From Lachnospiraceae bacterium (GTDB taxonomy: Bacteria > Bacillota > Clostridia > Lachnospirales > Lachnospiraceae), in contig JAFVHP010000033.1 of assembly GCA_017474455.1 (NCBI GenBank), forward strand, positions 84,970 through 148,969: 64,000 bases of DNA, in the 5' to 3' direction. A program made the translations under genes and the position numbers. Position 1 is the stretch's first letter. The number at the start of each line of letters is the position of its first letter. The notes under the pieces are model-generated. The model was not told the DNA's origin and made no database searches. It was given only the letters and a program-made list of their open reading frames with translations. Shown here in pieces: positions 11,501-64,000 of the stretch.

Positions 11501-12563
11501 GAAAAAACTGTTTGCCTTTAATTCGCAGCTGCTGATCCCGGTCATTGCCATCGTGATCCTCGTGATCTTCAACCTGTTCAGGGATCCGTCGTTCTTCTCC
11601 GTCAGCATAGCGTCCAACAACAACGGCGATCCGGTCCTGCAGGGCAACCTGATCTCGATCCTGAACGGTGCGTCCGAACTGGTCATTCTTGCCATGGGCA
11701 TGACCCTTGTGACGGCGGCCTGCGGAGGACAGGATATTTCCGTAGGCGCCCTTTCCGCGATCGCGGGCAGCGTATTTGTAAAAGTCTTAAAGAGCGGCGG
11801 CAGCATCAGCCCCGGCCTGGTGATCGGAGGCTTTCTGTGCTGCTGTATCGTGGCGATGATCTTCGGCGCTTTCAACGGTACGTTGGTCTCCGTTTTCGGC
11901 ATCCAGCCCATGATCGCGACGCTGATCCTCTTTACCTGCGGACGCAGCATCGCCTACTGGATCAACGGAGGCGCGACACCGACCGTAACGAGCCCCGTCA
12001 TTACGGCGATAGGCGGTTTCATACCGGGGATCCCGGTACCGACGCCCATCCTGATCGTCATCCTGGCGGCGTGCCTGTTCGCACTGCTTTTCCGTTTTAC
12101 CACACTGGGCCTGTATATCCAGTCTGTCGGCATCAACCAGGCCGCGTCCCGGCTGAACGGTATCCATAACGTAGGCATAAAGCTCCTGTCCTTCATCATC
12201 CTGGGCGCGTGCTGCGCGGTCTCCGGCGTGATCGGCGTCAGCCGCCTGGGCCTCATCAACCATGAGACGCTGCTCCTGAATATCGAGATGGACGCCATCC
12301 TCGCGGTCGCCATCGGCGGCAACAGCCTGGGCGGCGGCAGGTTCAACATGATCGGATCGGTCATCGGAGCCTATGCCATCCAGATGCTGACGATCACTCT
12401 CTATGCGATGAAGGTGCCTTCCACGGACGTGAAGGCTTACAAGGCAGTCGTCATTATCCTCCTGGTCGTGATCGGGTCTCCGGTCGTCAAGGAAGCGGCA
12501 GGCCGCTTCTGGAAGAAGATCAGTGAAAAGGGCACTGCAGGGACCGGAAAGGAGGCGGCATGA
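11493..12563 (+). CDS. Sugar ABC importer, first permease (YtfT-like)
   Basis: A 356-residue integral membrane protein of the RbsC/AraH permease family. It has about eight to ten membrane segments and the family motifs LVTAACGGQDISVGAL (around residues 70-86) and AVAIGGNSLGGGRFNMIGSVIGA in the last third. The order of binding protein, ATPase and two different permeases is that of E. coli ytfQ-ytfR-ytfT-yjfF, which imports galactofuranose; the substrate here is inferred only from that similarity. The gene overlaps the ATPase by 8 nt and the next permease by 4 nt. Confidence 0.9.
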   Translation: MNKKKLFAFNSQLLIPVIAIVILVIFNLFRDPSFFSVSIASNNNGDPVLQGNLISILNGASELVILAMGMTLVTAACGGQDISVGALSAIAGSVFVKVLKSGGSISPGLVIGGFLCCCIVAMIFGAFNGTLVSVFGIQPMIATLILFTCGRSIAYWINGGATPTVTSPVITAIGGFIPGIPVPTPILIVILAACLFALLFRFTTLGLYIQSVGINQAASRLNGIHNVGIKLLSFIILGACCAVSGVIGVSRLGLINHETLLLNIEMDAILAVAIGGNSLGGGRFNMIGSVIGAYAIQMLTITLYAMKVPSTDVKAYKAVVIILLVVIGSPVVKEAAGRFWKKISEKGTAGTGKEAA

Positions 12564-13633
12564 TCATGAATAAGAACGAAAACAGCCGCCCCGTGCGCGT
12601 ACGTGAACCGATCACCGACACACAGCTCCTCATAACGATCACGGTCTGCATCTTTTTCTTCATGTACATCCTGGCGATGCTGATCTGGGGAGGCGGCTTC
12701 CGCAAGCCGCAGATGATCTTCGACATCCTGAACGATAACGCCTACCTGATCATTATCTCCTGCGGCCTGACGGTCGTCATGATCACGGGCAGCATCGATA
12801 TTTCCGTAGGCGGCGTGACGGCGCTGGTCGCCATGGCCGACGTCATGATACTGAGCGGCCATGCCGGGCCTTTTTCCGGCATCCCGGAAAAGTCACGCAT
12901 CGTCCTCGCCTTCTGCATGGCGTTGTTCATCGGCCTTTTGTACGGGCTGATACAGGGATATCTGATCGCCTATCTGGAGATACAGCCGTTCATCATTACC
13001 CTGGCCGGAATGTTCTTCGCCAGGGGCATGATCACCATCATCAGCGTGGATCCCCAGAAAGCGCCCCAGAACCTGATGGACATCCTCCAGAAGAGGATCG
13101 AGATCCCCTGGCTCGGCTCGCCCAACAAAAAAGGCGTGATCATACCGGCAAGGATGGAGATCGGCGTAGTCATCGCCCTGGTGATCGTCGCCCTCATATT
13201 CATCCTCCTGACCAGGTTCCGGCTCGGCCGTCATTTCTACGCGGTCGGCGGCAACCGGCAGAGCGCGCTGATGCTCGGTGTCAATGTCAAAAAGACCCGT
13301 TTTATGGCGCACCTGATCAGCGGCCTCCTGGCGGGCATCGCCGGATTCGTGTTCATGATGCATACAGGGGCCGGCAACGCCACCAACGCGACGGCGGCTG
13401 AGATGAACGCCATCGCTTCCTCCATTATCGGCGGTACGCTCCTGACCGGCGGCGTCGGCAACGTCATCGGTACACTGTTCGGCGTACTGACCCTTTCCAC
13501 AATCAAATCGATCGTGACGACCTCCGGCTTAAGAGACCCCTGGTGGCAGAGCATCACCACCGGCGCCATGCTTTGCTTCTTCATCCTGCTGCAGAGCGTC
13601 GTCCTGATGCAGAAACATAAGAGAAGCAAATAA
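12560..13633 (+). CDS. Sugar ABC importer, second permease (YjfF-like)
   Basis: A 357-residue membrane protein of the same permease family as the preceding gene, with SCGLTVVMITGSIDISVGGV and SSIIGGTLLTGGVGNVIGTL motifs. The ATG at 12560 overlaps the previous stop codon (ATGA). The second ATG at 12566 is 10 nt from the GGAGG site and may be used instead. With the preceding gene it should form a heterodimeric channel. The last gene of the operon, it is followed by a strong terminator at 13712-13758. Confidence 0.9.
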   Translation: MIMNKNENSRPVRVREPITDTQLLITITVCIFFFMYILAMLIWGGGFRKPQMIFDILNDNAYLIIISCGLTVVMITGSIDISVGGVTALVAMADVMILSGHAGPFSGIPEKSRIVLAFCMALFIGLLYGLIQGYLIAYLEIQPFIITLAGMFFARGMITIISVDPQKAPQNLMDILQKRIEIPWLGSPNKKGVIIPARMEIGVVIALVIVALIFILLTRFRLGRHFYAVGGNRQSALMLGVNVKKTRFMAHLISGLLAGIAGFVFMMHTGAGNATNATAAEMNAIASSIIGGTLLTGGVGNVIGTLFGVLTLSTIKSIVTTSGLRDPWWQSITTGAMLCFFILLQSVVLMQKHKRSK

Positions 13634-13711: not shown

Positions 13712-13758
13712 AGCAGAAAAGAGAAACGGCATACTCCCTCCCGTTTCTCTTTTCTGCT
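13712..13758 (+). terminator. Terminator of the sugar-importer operon
   Basis: A perfect 18-bp stem (13712-13729 with 13741-13758) and an 11-nt loop, followed by GTTTA. An earlier C-TTTTTTT run lies at 13682-13688. Confidence 0.8.
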
Positions 13759-13855: not shown

Positions 13856-14623
13856 TTCGGCCTGCCAGTAGATATTTGAATTCCAGGCCGTCTCAGAGGA
13901 CCATAGAAGCGTTTTTATTCGGCCTGCCAGCTGAAACGTGAATCCTAGGCCGTCGTCGGTTCGGCCTGTTGAGCTGGATTTGTTGATCAGGCCGTCTGTT
14001 GACGGTGGTCAGACTTGGTTTCGACGGCCTGGGAATCAAAAATAGCAACCTAGGCCGAATCAGAAGACCATAAAAGCAGATTAATTCGGCCTGCCAGTTG
14101 AAATTTGAATTCCAGGCCGTCGTTGGTTCGGCCTGATGTGCTGGATTTGTTGATCAGGCCGTCTTTTGACAGAGGTCAGGCATGTTTTCGACGGCCTGGG
14201 AGTCAAAAATGGCATCCTAGGCCGTCTCAGACGACCAAACAAGCCACTAAATTCGGCCTGCCAGCTGATATCTGAATTCCAGGCCGTCCTCGGTTCGGCC
14301 TGTTGAGCTGGATTTGTTGATCAGGCCGTCTGTTGACGGTGGTCAGACTTGGTTTCGACGGCCTGGGAATCAAAAATGGCAACCTAGGCCGAATCAGAAG
14401 ACCATATAAGCAGATTAATTCGGCCTGCCAGCTGATATTTGAATTGCAGGCCGTCGTCGGTTCGGCCTGTTGTGCTAGATTTGCTGATCAGGCCGTCGGT
14501 TGACAGAGATCAGACATGATTTCGACGGCCTGGGAATCAAAAATGGCATCTTAAGCCGTCTCAGAAGACCGTAGAAGCAAGTTTATTCGGCCTGCCAGTT
14601 AAAATTTGAATTCTAGGCCGATC
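13856..14623. repeat. Array of 37-nt TTCGGCCT/AGGCCGTC elements with 167-bp higher-order period
   Basis: Fourteen copies of a 37-nt element that begins TTCGGCCT and ends AGGCCGTC or AGGCCGAA, with a 7-bp terminal inverted repeat CGGCCTG/CAGGCCG. Three types recur in fixed order. Type A starts at 13856, 13918, 14085, 14252, 14419 and 14586. Type B starts at 13960, 14127, 14294 and 14461. Type C, in inverted orientation, starts at 14023, 14190, 14357 and 14524. All type B and C copies, and the type A copies from 13918 on, are spaced exactly 167 bp apart. Linkers are 5, 26 and 25 nt. Copies 1 and 3, and copies 2 and 4, are most alike, which suggests a 334-bp dimer was duplicated. No gene is visible inside. 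Confidence 0.92.
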
Positions 14624-14729: not shown

Positions 14730-16250
14730 TCACCTTCCCGGTCCGCCAGTTCTGTCGTTTGGCATACCGTTCCCCCGGGCAGGCATACCATTTCCCTGGC
14801 CCGGCATACCGTTACCCTGGAAAGGCATGTCTTCCCCCCGGGCAGGCATACCTTCCGGCGGAGCGGGCATATCCTCCTGAGCAGGCATATCTTCCGGCAG
14901 GGCTGGCATATCCTCAGACGGAGCCATTTCCCCGCTGTTCTCCGGTATGTTTCCGTTTCCCTGCATCATGCCGGGCCTGCTGCCCATTCCTCTCATTCCG
15001 CCCAGGCCTCCCATCATCTGGTTTGAAAGGGCTGTCACCTGCGTGCCGTTGACATAGACGGTTCCCCCGTTCAATGAAGCTTTTCCGTCATAGTCAAAAG
15101 CGGAATTGCCGCTGACACGGATCGTGCCGCCGTTGATCGTCAGATTCCCGTTGGAGTCAAAGCCGTCGGTGTCGCCCTGGCCCATGGTGATCTCGATCTC
15201 ACCGCCGTTGATCTCGATGTTTACACTGTAAGCGGTGGATTTGGCAGCAGCGTTGATGCCGTCGTCGCTGGCCGAGATCGTGAAGCTGCCGTCATTGATC
15301 TGGATATTGGTGGATTCAATGCCTTCAACAGCCGTGATATCAAAGGTACCGCCGTCGATCTGCAGGAAAGCGTTGGCCTGGATGCCGTCGTCATCGGCTT
15401 CGATGACAAATGTACCGCCGCCGATCCACATATAGCCGAAGGAATCATCGTCGTCGTTCTCCGCGTGGAAAGCGTCTTTACCGGCTGTGATGTCGAAAGT
15501 ACCGTCCGCGATCACGATGGAATCATTGGCTTCGAATGCCTTTGAAGCGGCTGTGACTTCATATGTGCCGCCGGTCACCTTCAGGTCGTCCTTGGAAGTG
15601 ATGCCGTTGTCGGAGGATTCGATCGTCAGCGTGCCTGTGCCGTTCAGGACGAGGTCGTCTTTGGAAAAGATGACCGCATCCGTGTTGGTATCCCCGTCTG
15701 CGGCAAAATCATCTGTAACAGTCAGGTGGTTTTCGGAATCCGTCGTGGTAACGAAGACCTTGTCGGCATTCACTACATAAATGCAGGGAAAATCTTTGTT
15801 TGTAATGCTCAGACCGTCCAGTACCAGCTGTACCTTCGCTTCGTCCGCGGCTTCGATATAGACTGTCACTTCTTCCGCGCTGCCGGTAAGGACATATACG
15901 CCTTCTTCCGTAATATGGATATCGGTACCGTCTTCAACGGTGTAGTGAACGGTACCGGACAGATCCGCTTCCTGCTGCAGGTCCCTGTCCGAAAACAGGC
16001 CGTCTGTATCGATGAGCGCGGATGTATCCTCAGCGCCCACGGCAGCAGAAGCTGCGCTGGAGGAGTCTGTATTAGAGGGCGCTTCGTTTGAGGCAGCTGC
16101 TGCAGAAGAGGCAGCAACTCCGGAAAGCTCCGTTCCTGTTCCCGCTGCCTGGACCTGCCGGTCGGCGGCTGCCGTGCATCCCAGGACAGAGAAGATTATG
16201 ATACCCGCGGCAATTGCCGCTGCCAGTTTATTTGACTTTTCTTTTCTCAT
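14730..16250 (-). CDS. DUF4353 (Cthe_2159-like) beta-helix surface lipoprotein
   Basis: A 506-residue exported protein with lipobox SVLGC, a Ser/Ala-rich linker to about residue 85, then repeated short beta strands such as GTFDITAGKDAFHAEN and GGTFVIEADDDGIQAN. This pattern is that of DUF4353 proteins; the founding member Cthe_2159 is a right-handed beta helix that binds plant polysaccharide. Many paired acidic residues (DDDD, ADDDG) suggest calcium sites. The last 110 residues form a low-complexity tail of Met, Pro and Gly with repeats like GNGMPGQ and EDMPA. It probably binds carbohydrate at the cell surface. It stands alone between its own terminator and a gap. Confidence 0.85.
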   Translation of the reverse strand: MRKEKSNKLAAAIAAGIIIFSVLGCTAAADRQVQAAGTGTELSGVAASSAAAASNEAPSNTDSSSAASAAVGAEDTSALIDTDGLFSDRDLQQEADLSGTVHYTVEDGTDIHITEEGVYVLTGSAEEVTVYIEAADEAKVQLVLDGLSITNKDFPCIYVVNADKVFVTTTDSENHLTVTDDFAADGDTNTDAVIFSKDDLVLNGTGTLTIESSDNGITSKDDLKVTGGTYEVTAASKAFEANDSIVIADGTFDITAGKDAFHAENDDDDSFGYMWIGGGTFVIEADDDGIQANAFLQIDGGTFDITAVEGIESTNIQINDGSFTISASDDGINAAAKSTAYSVNIEINGGEIEITMGQGDTDGFDSNGNLTINGGTIRVSGNSAFDYDGKASLNGGTVYVNGTQVTALSNQMMGGLGGMRGMGSRPGMMQGNGNIPENSGEMAPSEDMPALPEDMPAQEDMPAPPEGMPARGEDMPFQGNGMPGQGNGMPARGNGMPNDRTGGPGR

Positions 16251-34363: not shown

Positions 34364-34450
34364 GCGAAAACAGATGTAAAAACAGATGTGAAAACAGATG
34401 CGAAAACAGGAGACGCGAAAACAGACGTAAAAATAGATGTGAAAACAGAC
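34364..34450. repeat. 12-bp minisatellite, about seven copies
   Basis: Unit G-N-GAAAACAGAT in about seven copies, with one 3-bp insertion. The repeat keeps a frame open on both strands, for example KTDVKTDVKTD, but no convincing ribosome site or homology is present, so I do not call a gene. Confidence 0.8.
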
Positions 34451-34725: not shown

Positions 34726-34814
34726 TTACATATTTCCTGCTCATATGTATCATGAGGTGCTGCCTGCCTCTGCAGGTCATACGGAATCGATGATCCGCAG
34801 CTGTTAATATGTGT

Positions 34815-35005
34815 GGCAGCCACCAAAAACAGGGAGCCGGTTACAGAATATGTCCGGCAGCCACCAAAAAACAGGAAGCCGGAGACAGACTTTGTATGTG
34901 TGGCCGCCAAAAAACAGAAGGCCTGATACAGAATATGTAAGTTAGCTGTTAAAAACAGAAGGCCTGATACAGAATATGTAAGTTAGCTGTTAAAAACAGG
35001 AGGTC
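34815..35005. repeat. 42-bp degenerate tandem repeat, five copies
   Basis: AAAAACAG recurs about every 42 bp (34825, 34866, 34909, 34951, 34992), each followed by a GCC-G-ACAGA-TATGT segment. The two central copies are nearly identical. The last copy provides the AGGAGG-like ribosome site of the following small gene. Confidence 0.75.
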
Positions 35006-35016
35006 AGATACAGAAG

Positions 35017-48077: not shown

Positions 48078-48117
48078 AAAGCCGGGGCCTCTGCTGTGCA
48101 GCAGAAGCTCCGGCTTT
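48078..48117 (+). terminator. Terminator of the malic enzyme gene
   Basis: Outer arms AAAGCCGG/CCGGCTTT and an inner stem CTGCTG/CAGCAG. The 3' arm also forms the first unit of the following 38-bp repeat. Confidence 0.65.
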
Positions 48118-48211
48118 GTTCAGGTGTTCCGGTTGAGCCCAGCTGTGCAGGCTTTGTTCAGGTGTTTCGGTTGAGCCCAGTTGTTCTGGCTTTGTTCAGC
48201 TGTTCCGGCGG
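48112..48211. repeat. 38-bp tandem repeat, two and a half copies
   Basis: GGCTTTGTTCAGGTGTT...GAGCCCAG begins at 48112, 48150 and 48188, exactly 38 bp apart. It grows out of the terminator of the malic enzyme gene. The rest of this 759-bp gap (48212-48690) contains no gene that I can support. A possible weak hairpin, AAACAGGC with GCCTGTTTTT, lies at about 48557-48600. Confidence 0.75.
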
Positions 48212-56978: not shown

Positions 56979-57015
56979 AAAAACAGAGTTTACGGTGCCG
57001 TAAACTCTGTTTTTA
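56979..57015 (+). terminator. Terminator of the alpha/beta-barrel gene
   Basis: An almost perfect palindrome AAAAACAGAGTTTACGG/CCGTAAACTCTGTTTTT with a short central loop. Confidence 0.85.
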
Positions 57016-57154
57016 TGTGCTGGCTTCATATGTTGCCTTTATGTGCTGGCTTCATATGTTGCCTTTATGTGCTGCGTTTATATGCTGCGTTTATGAGCTG
57101 CCTTTGTGTGTTGCGTTTTGTGCTTGCCTTTACGTGCTGCATTTATGCATTGCG
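57012..57154. repeat. 13-bp minisatellite, eleven copies
   Basis: Units like TTTATGTGCTGGC and TTCATATGTTGCC follow one another every 13 bp from 57012 to 57154. The first unit begins in the T-run of the preceding terminator. The length is not a multiple of three, and the frames it opens (Cys/Leu-rich) are not credible genes. The rest of the gap to 57540 shows only short GGCTTCTGACC repeats near 57220-57255. Confidence 0.85.
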
Positions 57155-63777: not shown

Positions 63778-64000
63778 CAGGCCGAATCTGGATATTGCAG
63801 ATTCGGCCTGAATTGCAATTTTGCTGATATAGGCCGTCTGGACAAGGCAAAAGTTCGGCCTGAATTGCTGTTTTGCAAGGACAGGCCGTCCAAAAGAGAG
63901 AAGATTTCGGCTTGAATTGTCATTTTGTTGATTCAGGCCGTCGAAATAAGGCAAGTATTCGGCCTAAATCGTTGTTTTGCACGGTTAGGCCGTCCAAAAG
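63778..64000. repeat. Second array of the 37-nt TTCGGCCT/AGGCCGTC element, exact 52-bp period
   Basis: Four 37-nt elements start at 63802, 63854, 63906 and 63958, exactly 52 bp apart with 15-nt linkers. The array runs to or beyond the window end. Each begins TTCGGCCT (one has TTCGGCTT) and ends AGGCCGTC, with A/T-rich centres around TTTTG. The first element is preceded by a mirrored half, making a perfect 13-bp hairpin CAGGCCGAATCTG/CAGATTCGGCCTG (63778-63810). The element length and ends are those of the array at 13856-14623, 50 kb away. Confidence 0.9.

What the first reader, a model, noticed from the sequence alone, without database searches (positions are those of the whole stretch)
13856..14623. 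A 37-nt palindromic element in a 167-bp higher-order array without indels
Seen: elements of exactly 37 nt, with 7-bp terminal inverted repeats (CGGCCTG/CAGGCCG), occur in a fixed A-B-inverted C order. B and C copies and all but the first A copy are spaced exactly 167 bp. Copies 1/3 and 2/4 resemble each other most, so a 334-bp dimer seems to have been duplicated. Sequence has drifted at many positions but no length change is tolerated. Inference: element length and spacing are under selection, as for protein-bound DNA arrays, RNA hairpins or a recombination substrate. It does not match CRISPR, integron attC or REP elements that I know. This is my best candidate for an undescribed element.
Basis: partly seen in the sequence, partly recalled or inferred. 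Interest (0 to 1): 0.72.

Follow-up and report, generated by a model that had tools for sequence, protein, structure and literature searches.

The report
Evenly pitched palindromic DNA repeat arrays
Several gaps between genes of this bacterium hold strings of a short mirror-image DNA element repeated at a nearly fixed step of about five turns of the double helix, and two other bacteria have similar strings with different letters, which suggests an undescribed kind of repeat built as a row of binding sites on DNA.

Summary
The geometry reported holds: 14 elements of 37 nt in A-B-inverted C order, steps 62/42/63 (sum 167), no indel. It is not local. The same genome has about 59 such elements in seven places on six contigs; outside the reported array 37 of 41 steps are exactly 52 bp. 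CGGC/GCCG ends are nearly invariant while the interior drifts. A three-element pattern found arrays in none of 61 congeners (one single match, G470). Two further genomes have arrays with other letters: a Lachnospiraceae MAG (60 elements counted, 33-nt core, step 51/52) and a same-family genome (34-nt core, steps 22/49/50/71/101). Odd steps of the reported array differ from 52 by -10, +10, +11, near whole helical turns. Six of the MAG's arrays tested have A/T tracts phased at 10.3 bp. RNA covariation is weak; no RAYT gene or Rfam match was found. Best reading: rows of half-sites on duplex DNA for an unidentified protein, BIME-like in looks but outside both tagged REP superfamilies. A neutral satellite-like origin stays a serious rival. 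No binding protein was identified.

The parts
13856..14622 (.). Whole reported array: 14 palindromic 37-nt elements, steps 62/42/63, intergenic between two convergent genes
13856..13892 (+). element A (first, extra copy)
13918..13954 (+). element A
13960..13996 (+). element B
14023..14059 (-). element C (inverted)
14085..14121 (+). element A
14127..14163 (+). element B
14190..14226 (-). element C (inverted)
14252..14288 (+). element A
14294..14330 (+). element B
14357..14393 (-). element C (inverted)
14419..14455 (+). element A
14461..14497 (+). element B
14524..14560 (-). element C (inverted), one end changed to CGGCTT
14586..14622 (+). element A (last)
63802..64000 (+). Second array of the same family, step 52 (37-nt element + 15-nt linker): four elements at 63802, 63854, 63906, 63958, cut off by the contig end
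   Evidence: contig end
63779..63784 (+). lone half-site AGGCCG in register (25 bp before the next CGGCCT) at the start of the second array
12560..13633 (+). upstream neighbour: ABC-transporter permease (BPD_transp_2); 222 bases lie between it and the array
14730..16250 (-). downstream neighbour: Cthe_2159-type carbohydrate-binding protein, convergent; 107 bases lie between

Best explanation
The arrays are rows of paired half-sites (CGGCYT ... ARGCCG, 33-34 bp from end to end) on double-stranded DNA, set at close to whole helical turns so that an unidentified dimeric or oligomeric DNA-binding protein can stack side by side and form an ordered nucleoprotein patch in intergenic DNA, comparable in role to the BIME-2 arrays that bind DNA gyrase. 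Shown: the arrays, their near-fixed element length and step, near-invariant ends, drifting interior, intergenic placement, and occurrence in three genomes. Inferred: that length and phase are under selection, that a protein binds, and that the patch structures or insulates DNA locally.
For: Element length: of 50 G000 matches listed (66 in all), the 40 in arrays are all 33 nt although 32-34 were allowed; of 25 listed for G259 (36 in all), 23 are 34 nt. In 12 loci of G481 a search free in length (15-60 nt) gives 46 at 33 nt and 1 at 45; linkers are 18 (27), 19 (12), 31 (1). Step: 37 of 41 steps outside the main array are 52 in G000; G481 has 26 of 51 and 22 of 52. Changes of the main array relative to 52 are -10, +10, +11 (p 0.001-0.002 against uniform changes, an arbitrary null). 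Ends: CGGC 59 of 59 at each position, GCCG 58-59 of 59. Drift: minimum spanning trees sum to 290 substitutions in five G000 unit sets cut in register, with no indel inside them. In G481 the 10.3-bp harmonic of A/T content ranks first in 6 of 6 arrays tested (6 of 12 loci), p 0.0002-0.017 with a run-preserving null. On C39 two sequence subfamilies adjoin and keep the 52-bp register. Mismatches persist in G481 (G.G 10 and C.C 4 of 60 at pair 2), which fits independent half-sites better than a required hairpin.
Against: No binding protein was identified, and no neighbour is shared by all the arrays whose flanks were scanned (20 proteins without any family; G259 flanks and half of the G481 loci not scanned). 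In G259 the steps 22/49/50/71/101 are not whole turns at 10.4-10.5 bp (p 0.24 and 0.55), only at 10.2 (p 0.011). In G000 the A/T periodicity is nominally significant with column permutation (p 0.011) but not with the run-preserving null (p 0.11-0.70, six arrays). Predicted curvature in G000 is not above null with the full wedge model (p 0.31-0.92), and only in 2 of 6 arrays with an A-tract-only model. The half-sites of one element lie 27 bp apart, about 2.6 turns, on roughly opposite faces, odd for one simple dimer. Equal steps arise anyway when units are copied, and independent step values are few. CGGC ends were part of the search pattern for the other genomes, so their sharing is not independent evidence.
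Confidence: 0.45

Rival explanations
1. Satellite-like neutral arrays. A palindrome-bearing unit of about 52 bp was duplicated in tandem by slippage or unequal exchange, copied to a few places, and homogenised by gene conversion; the constant step is inherited and the ends persist through hairpin-assisted duplication, with no function.
For: Elements occur almost only in arrays: 10 non-array matches among the 50 listed in G000, 7 of them 32 nt, against 15 for the reversed control over the whole genome. Distribution is patchy: G000 alone in the genus sample (one single match elsewhere) and alone in 397 family genomes with the fixed-core pattern. Units 1 and 3 of the main array agree at 159 of 167, a recent duplication; the 103-bp A-B dimer period in G481 also shows duplication. 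Neighbours and orientations are mixed. The same window has other, unrelated tandem arrays.
Against: Units of 50% identity (C17) and 38% (C39, between subfamilies) keep their length. Of the other tandem arrays of the window some show 2-9% indels (34806-35015, 57012-57147, 34366-34449) but others 0% (coding status not checked), so this contrast is only suggestive. Core 33 and step 51-52 recur in G481 with different letters. Step changes in the reported array are near whole helical turns.
Confidence: 0.32
2. RNA elements: the arrays are transcribed and each unit acts as a hairpin for termination, mRNA stability or protein binding.
For: Seven of eight elements folded have z below -2 (the eighth -1.72). 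At the fifth outer pair U-G (11) and U-A (4) occur beside C-G (44), C-A never. With a two-helix structure the covariation score (0.183) is reached by 10 of 500 shuffles, and cells with both-side changes (40) by 17 of 500; that control ignores relatedness.
Against: RNAalifold keeps only six outer pairs, 1 of them with both-side changes; the inner helix pairs in 48% of cells. Pair 8/30 has 3 C-A against 2 U-G and pair 9/29 has 22 A-C against 9 G-U. G481 keeps a G.G or C.C mismatch in 14 of 60 elements. No Rfam match in 14 sources apart from two tRNAs, at gathering threshold. Flanking genes are convergent, tandem and divergent.
Confidence: 0.13
3. Mobile REP/MITE-type elements, or remains of them, spread by a transposase acting in trans.
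For: Palindromic, intergenic, multi-copy, clustered units of 33-41 nt.
Against: No Y1_Tnp (PF01797) in G000 or G481, while the same search rings in 5 of 14 control genomes (G259 not searched, other transposase families not searched). No GTAG flank. Few or no dispersed single copies among the listed matches. Target-site duplication was not examined.
Confidence: 0.08

Closest known systems
[quoted passage not shown] BIME-2 strongly bind DNA gyrase)
   Same: Intergenic clusters of palindromic units of 30-40 nt with short linkers; protein binding is documented for BIMEs.
   Different: Here the 52-bp arrays are mostly head-to-tail by flank letters, the step is fixed, single dispersed units are lacking among listed matches, there is no GTAG head and no Y1_Tnp gene in two genomes searched. 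For Stenotrophomonas clusters those passages say inter-REP segments vary substantially in length.
GTAG- and CGTC-tagged REP superfamilies (PMC3733652; abstract and passages seen)
   Same: Small palindromic repeats in intergenic DNA; most G000 elements end in CGTC (T36 55 of 59, C37 46 of 59).
   Different: CGTC class as described there: unpaired tag, stem 8-9 bp, loop 4-5, HH dimers predominant, clusters rare. Here CG of CGTC is inside the stem, the stem is 6-7 bp in G000 and about 9 in G481, the loop 15-21, the order mostly head-to-tail, and units are clustered. 'Firmicutes' and 'Clostridi' occur 0 times in that main text.
CRISPR arrays (recalled)
   Same: Regular repeats of about 37 nt with partial dyad symmetry.
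   Different: Linkers of 15 nt that resemble each other within an array; elements diverge far more than CRISPR repeats do.
Operator or iteron arrays of DNA-binding proteins (recalled)
   Same: Half-sites at helical-turn steps.
   Different: No cognate gene seen next to the arrays scanned; several arrays per chromosome at unrelated genes.

Membership tests
GTAG-tagged REP | unpaired GTAG (GTRG) head next to the stem | tested here: not met
   the two bases outside the stem are mostly TT on one side and TC on the other in 59 elements; bases further out not counted
GTAG-tagged REP | associated RAYT (Y1_Tnp) gene | tested here: not met
   0 of 2 genomes (G000, G481); control rings in 5 of 14; G259 not searched; both are drafts
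GTAG-tagged REP | many dispersed single or paired copies | tested here: not met
   40 of 50 listed G000 matches lie in arrays; the other 10 are at control level (16 of 66 not listed)
CGTC-tagged REP | unpaired CGTC tag, 8-9 bp stem, 4-5 nt loop, HH dimers | tested here: not met
   six conserved outer pairs and a 19-21 nt loop in G000; head-to-tail arrays; definition
BIME | regularly spaced palindromic units in clusters | tested here: met
BIME | built of REPs in alternating orientation | tested here: not met
   by flank letters the 52-bp arrays of C15 end, C21, C23 and C47 are uniformly oriented, C17 all but its ambiguous last unit; C39 is mixed because its flanks are ambiguous; only the main array has clearly inverted copies
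BIME | binding of gyrase, IHF or Pol I | not testable with these tools
   needs a binding assay
CRISPR | near-identical repeats with unique spacers of 25 nt or more (recalled) | tested here: not met
   15-nt linkers; mean unit identity 66-89% in five G000 sets
Rfam RNA family | match to a curated covariance model | tested here: not met
   0 in the window, 2 tRNAs only in 13 array loci, gathering threshold
Helically phased protein-binding array | steps at whole helical turns | tested here: inconclusive
   met in G000 (p 0.0004 at 10.4 bp, values not independent), near in G481 (p 0.03), not in G259 at 10.4-10.5 bp
Helically phased protein-binding array | a protein that binds the unit | not testable with these tools
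   no candidate seen among scanned neighbours

The most novel reading that the evidence does not exclude
A patchily distributed bacterial chromosome-organising system: a dedicated protein forms filaments or condensates on phased CGGC half-site arrays at several chromosomal places, a bacterial counterpart of satellite DNA in which pitch and unit length, not sequence, are conserved between species.
Probability: 0.18. Interest if true: 0.85.

Novelty: new variant of a known kind. Interest (0 to 1): 0.6.

Why it matters
Small bacterial palindromic repeats have been sorted by sequence tags and linked transposases (PMC3733652). Here geometry (33-34 bp core, about 52-bp step) recurs in different genomes while letters change, and no Y1 transposase is found in the two genomes searched. 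If a protein reads that geometry, it would be a new way of marking bacterial chromosomes; if not, these arrays are a clean bacterial model of satellite birth and turnover. Three of the seven places lie at contig ends, so such arrays may be broken in draft assemblies and under-reported.

Tried and rejected
Rejected: CRISPR; RAYT-driven REP; known RNA family; coding repeat (52 and 167 are not multiples of 3, and no ORF of 80 aa or more lies within 13856-14622; overlapping open frames do run through the C23 array); phage or plasmid origin (no blastn match in either collection). Viral contigs gave 1 and 28 scattered pattern matches, judged chance; of these only L081 was read. Tried without result: the open-geometry pattern on 391 class genomes, where by eye nothing matches the excess of G000; the largest other excesses, G556 (15/4 against control 4/4), G485 (4/11 against 5/4) and G671 (11/7 against 5/5), were not followed up. 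In the family sample G155 (10/4 against 3/4) was inspected and shows scattered matches, no array. DNA curvature as a shared property (only G481); inner helix; shared neighbour gene. At the orthologous permease of the three nearest congeners no tandem repeat was found in L169-L171, but L170 ends soon after the gene, and the gene after it in L169 is not the one seen here (by eye), so this is not a clean empty site. My crude ORF caller mis-assigned the gene right of the C23 array (compare). Of the 40 stretches, 12 belong to the MAG; of the other 28 only four were read (L045, L068, L070, L071): L045 looks coding, L071 is a different repeat, L068 and L070 show no array by eye. In one search, 8 of 68 element matches without a neighbour were dropped. 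My notebook says at least 14 array contigs for G481; the count is 13. Literature: six searches listed no paper whose title or shown abstract describes such arrays; many subscription papers are not held.

Full report
WHAT IS THERE. The reported geometry is real: 14 elements of 37 nt, steps 62, 42, 63 repeated, 167 bp per trimer, no indel. One detail fails: units 1 and 3 agree at 159 of 167, but 2 and 4 (144) are no closer than the other pairs (141-145). The array lies between the ends of two convergent genes, a BPD_transp_2 permease (12560-13633) and a Cthe_2159 protein (14730-16250). A second array at window 63802-64000 has a 52-bp step, is preceded by a lone half-site in register at 63779, and runs into the contig end.

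GENOME-WIDE. The window lies in a 2.62-Mb draft of 51 contigs. Pattern searches and a scan of the window and six fetched stretches give arrays at seven places: C15 (two), C17, C21 start, C23, C39 and C47 end. C15 end, C21 and C47 share one subfamily and may be pieces of fewer arrays. I took 59 elements (54 distinct) for counting; two degenerate units and one shortened unit on C39, and incomplete or degenerate copies at the ends of the C23 and C21 arrays, were left out. CGGC is present in 59 of 59 at each position; the other end reads G 58, C 59, C 58, G 59 of 59. The elements were picked with a score that counts these positions but allowed mismatches. The interior varies at almost every column (52 elements).

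PITCH. Outside the main array 37 of 41 steps are 52; the exceptions are 53, 51, 71 and 91. The 91 is a normal step plus a 39-bp unit whose element lost 13 bp; the 71 and 51 involve degenerate units. In five unit sets of G000, cut in register, the minimum spanning trees sum to 290 substitutions with no indel within the sets; mean identities are 66-89%, the lowest pair 38%, on C39, where two subfamilies meet. As a rough control, other tandem arrays of the window have 0 to 9% indels, so the contrast is suggestive only. The main array's linkers (25, 5, 26) differ from 15 by +10, -10, +11 nt. Against uniform changes this has p 0.001-0.002, with an arbitrary null and few values.

OTHER GENOMES. Exact single-element pattern in 60 relatives (36 congeners): 4 have one matching site each, none an array. 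Two-element pattern with fixed core: G000 only, of 397 family genomes. Three-element CGGC pattern in 61 other genus members: one single match, in G470. A scan of genome contigs for CGGCYT-N21-ARGCCG pairs with linker 5-34 gave 40 stretches; 12 belong to one MAG, 'uncultured Lachnospiraceae bacterium isolate E0_DP__bin71', whose genome G481 has matches on 13 contigs (27 a strand against a control of 3). Its arrays use CGGCTTTTT/AAAAAGCCG; 60 elements from 12 loci were counted, with steps 51 (26) and 52 (22). The 33-nt core was imposed in finding the MAG and in collecting those 60, but in a search free in length 46 of 47 half-site pairs are 33 nt. Of three genomes of its genus only G481 has arrays; G482 has one match. 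An open-geometry pattern (core 20-50, linker 5-35) on 397 family genomes matched in 191, mostly at control level. By eye G000 (45/52 against control 10/9) and G259 (10/10 against 1/0) stand out; G155 was inspected too and has no array. G259 (70% complete) has 34-nt elements with steps 22, 49, 50, 71 and 101, some overlapping. The same pattern on 391 class genomes showed no clear further case; three moderate excesses were not followed up. The family of G000 is not named by any search; Lachnospiraceae is my inference.

DNA OR RNA. In G481 A/T tracts recur at 10.3 bp: top harmonic in 6 of 6 arrays tested (of 12 loci), p 0.0002-0.017 with a null that keeps run lengths. Predicted bend there is 59-73 degrees per 50 bp against about 30 in column-shuffled nulls, which break A-tracts and so favour this result; the wedge parameters are recalled. 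In G000 the mean profile has p 0.011 by column permutation, but single arrays are not significant with the stricter null (p 0.11-0.70; first-ranked in 2 of 6), nor are two G259 arrays (p 0.17-0.20). RNA: single elements mostly fold better than shuffles; outer-pair covariation is limited to one pair of six; with an added inner helix the covariation score beats 490 of 500 shuffles, a control that ignores relatedness, while that helix pairs in only 48% of cells. On the whole the data lean to duplex DNA, not strongly.

CONTEXT. Neighbours scanned are ordinary and mostly differ: MatE transporters (C21 and C39), ABC transporters (C47, and L050 of G481), nitroreductase and tRNA-editing protein (C23), calcineurin-like phosphoesterase (C39), YlmH-like protein (C15 end), amidase, GGDEF protein, SpoVT, peptidase M3 and others in G481. 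Four of the 20 proteins match no family. Flanks of G259 and of half the G481 loci were not scanned. Orientations are mixed (crude ORF calls). No Y1 transposase in G000 or G481.

READING. The best explanation is a row of half-site pairs on duplex DNA for an unidentified protein. What is shown is anatomy; binding and function are inferred. The strongest rival is a neutral satellite-like repeat. Against known classes the arrays are BIME-like in looks but fail the tests for GTAG and CGTC REPs (PMC3733652 abstract and passages; PMC2817692 and PMC6006769 passages). I therefore call it a new variant of a known kind, intergenic palindromic repeat arrays.

Noticed in passing
window 34806-35015: Another tandem array, period 41-43, with CCGGC...GCCGG-type inverted repeats in some units and 2-3% indels in most TRF rows.
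   Followed up: partly
window 48109-48209 and 57012-57147: Further short-period tandem arrays (38/19 bp and 13/26 bp), unrelated in sequence by eye.
   Followed up: no
window 13712-13758: Perfect 18-bp inverted repeat with 11 nt between the arms just after the permease gene, likely its terminator.
   Followed up: no
L029 9499-10094 (C39): Two sequence subfamilies adjoin in one array without losing the 52-bp register; one element is shortened by 13 bp.
   Followed up: partly
L138, L146, L158, L166 (G259): Mosaic arrays in which 34-nt elements overlap by a 12-nt palindrome CGGCTTAAGCCG; a second repeat with CTTGC...GCAAG arms lies nearby.
   Followed up: no
L071 1187-1393: A different palindromic tandem repeat (116-bp step) in a Bacteroidales MAG.
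   Followed up: no
C15 end, C21 start, C47 end: Three of seven array places are at contig ends, so array number and length are uncertain.
   Followed up: no
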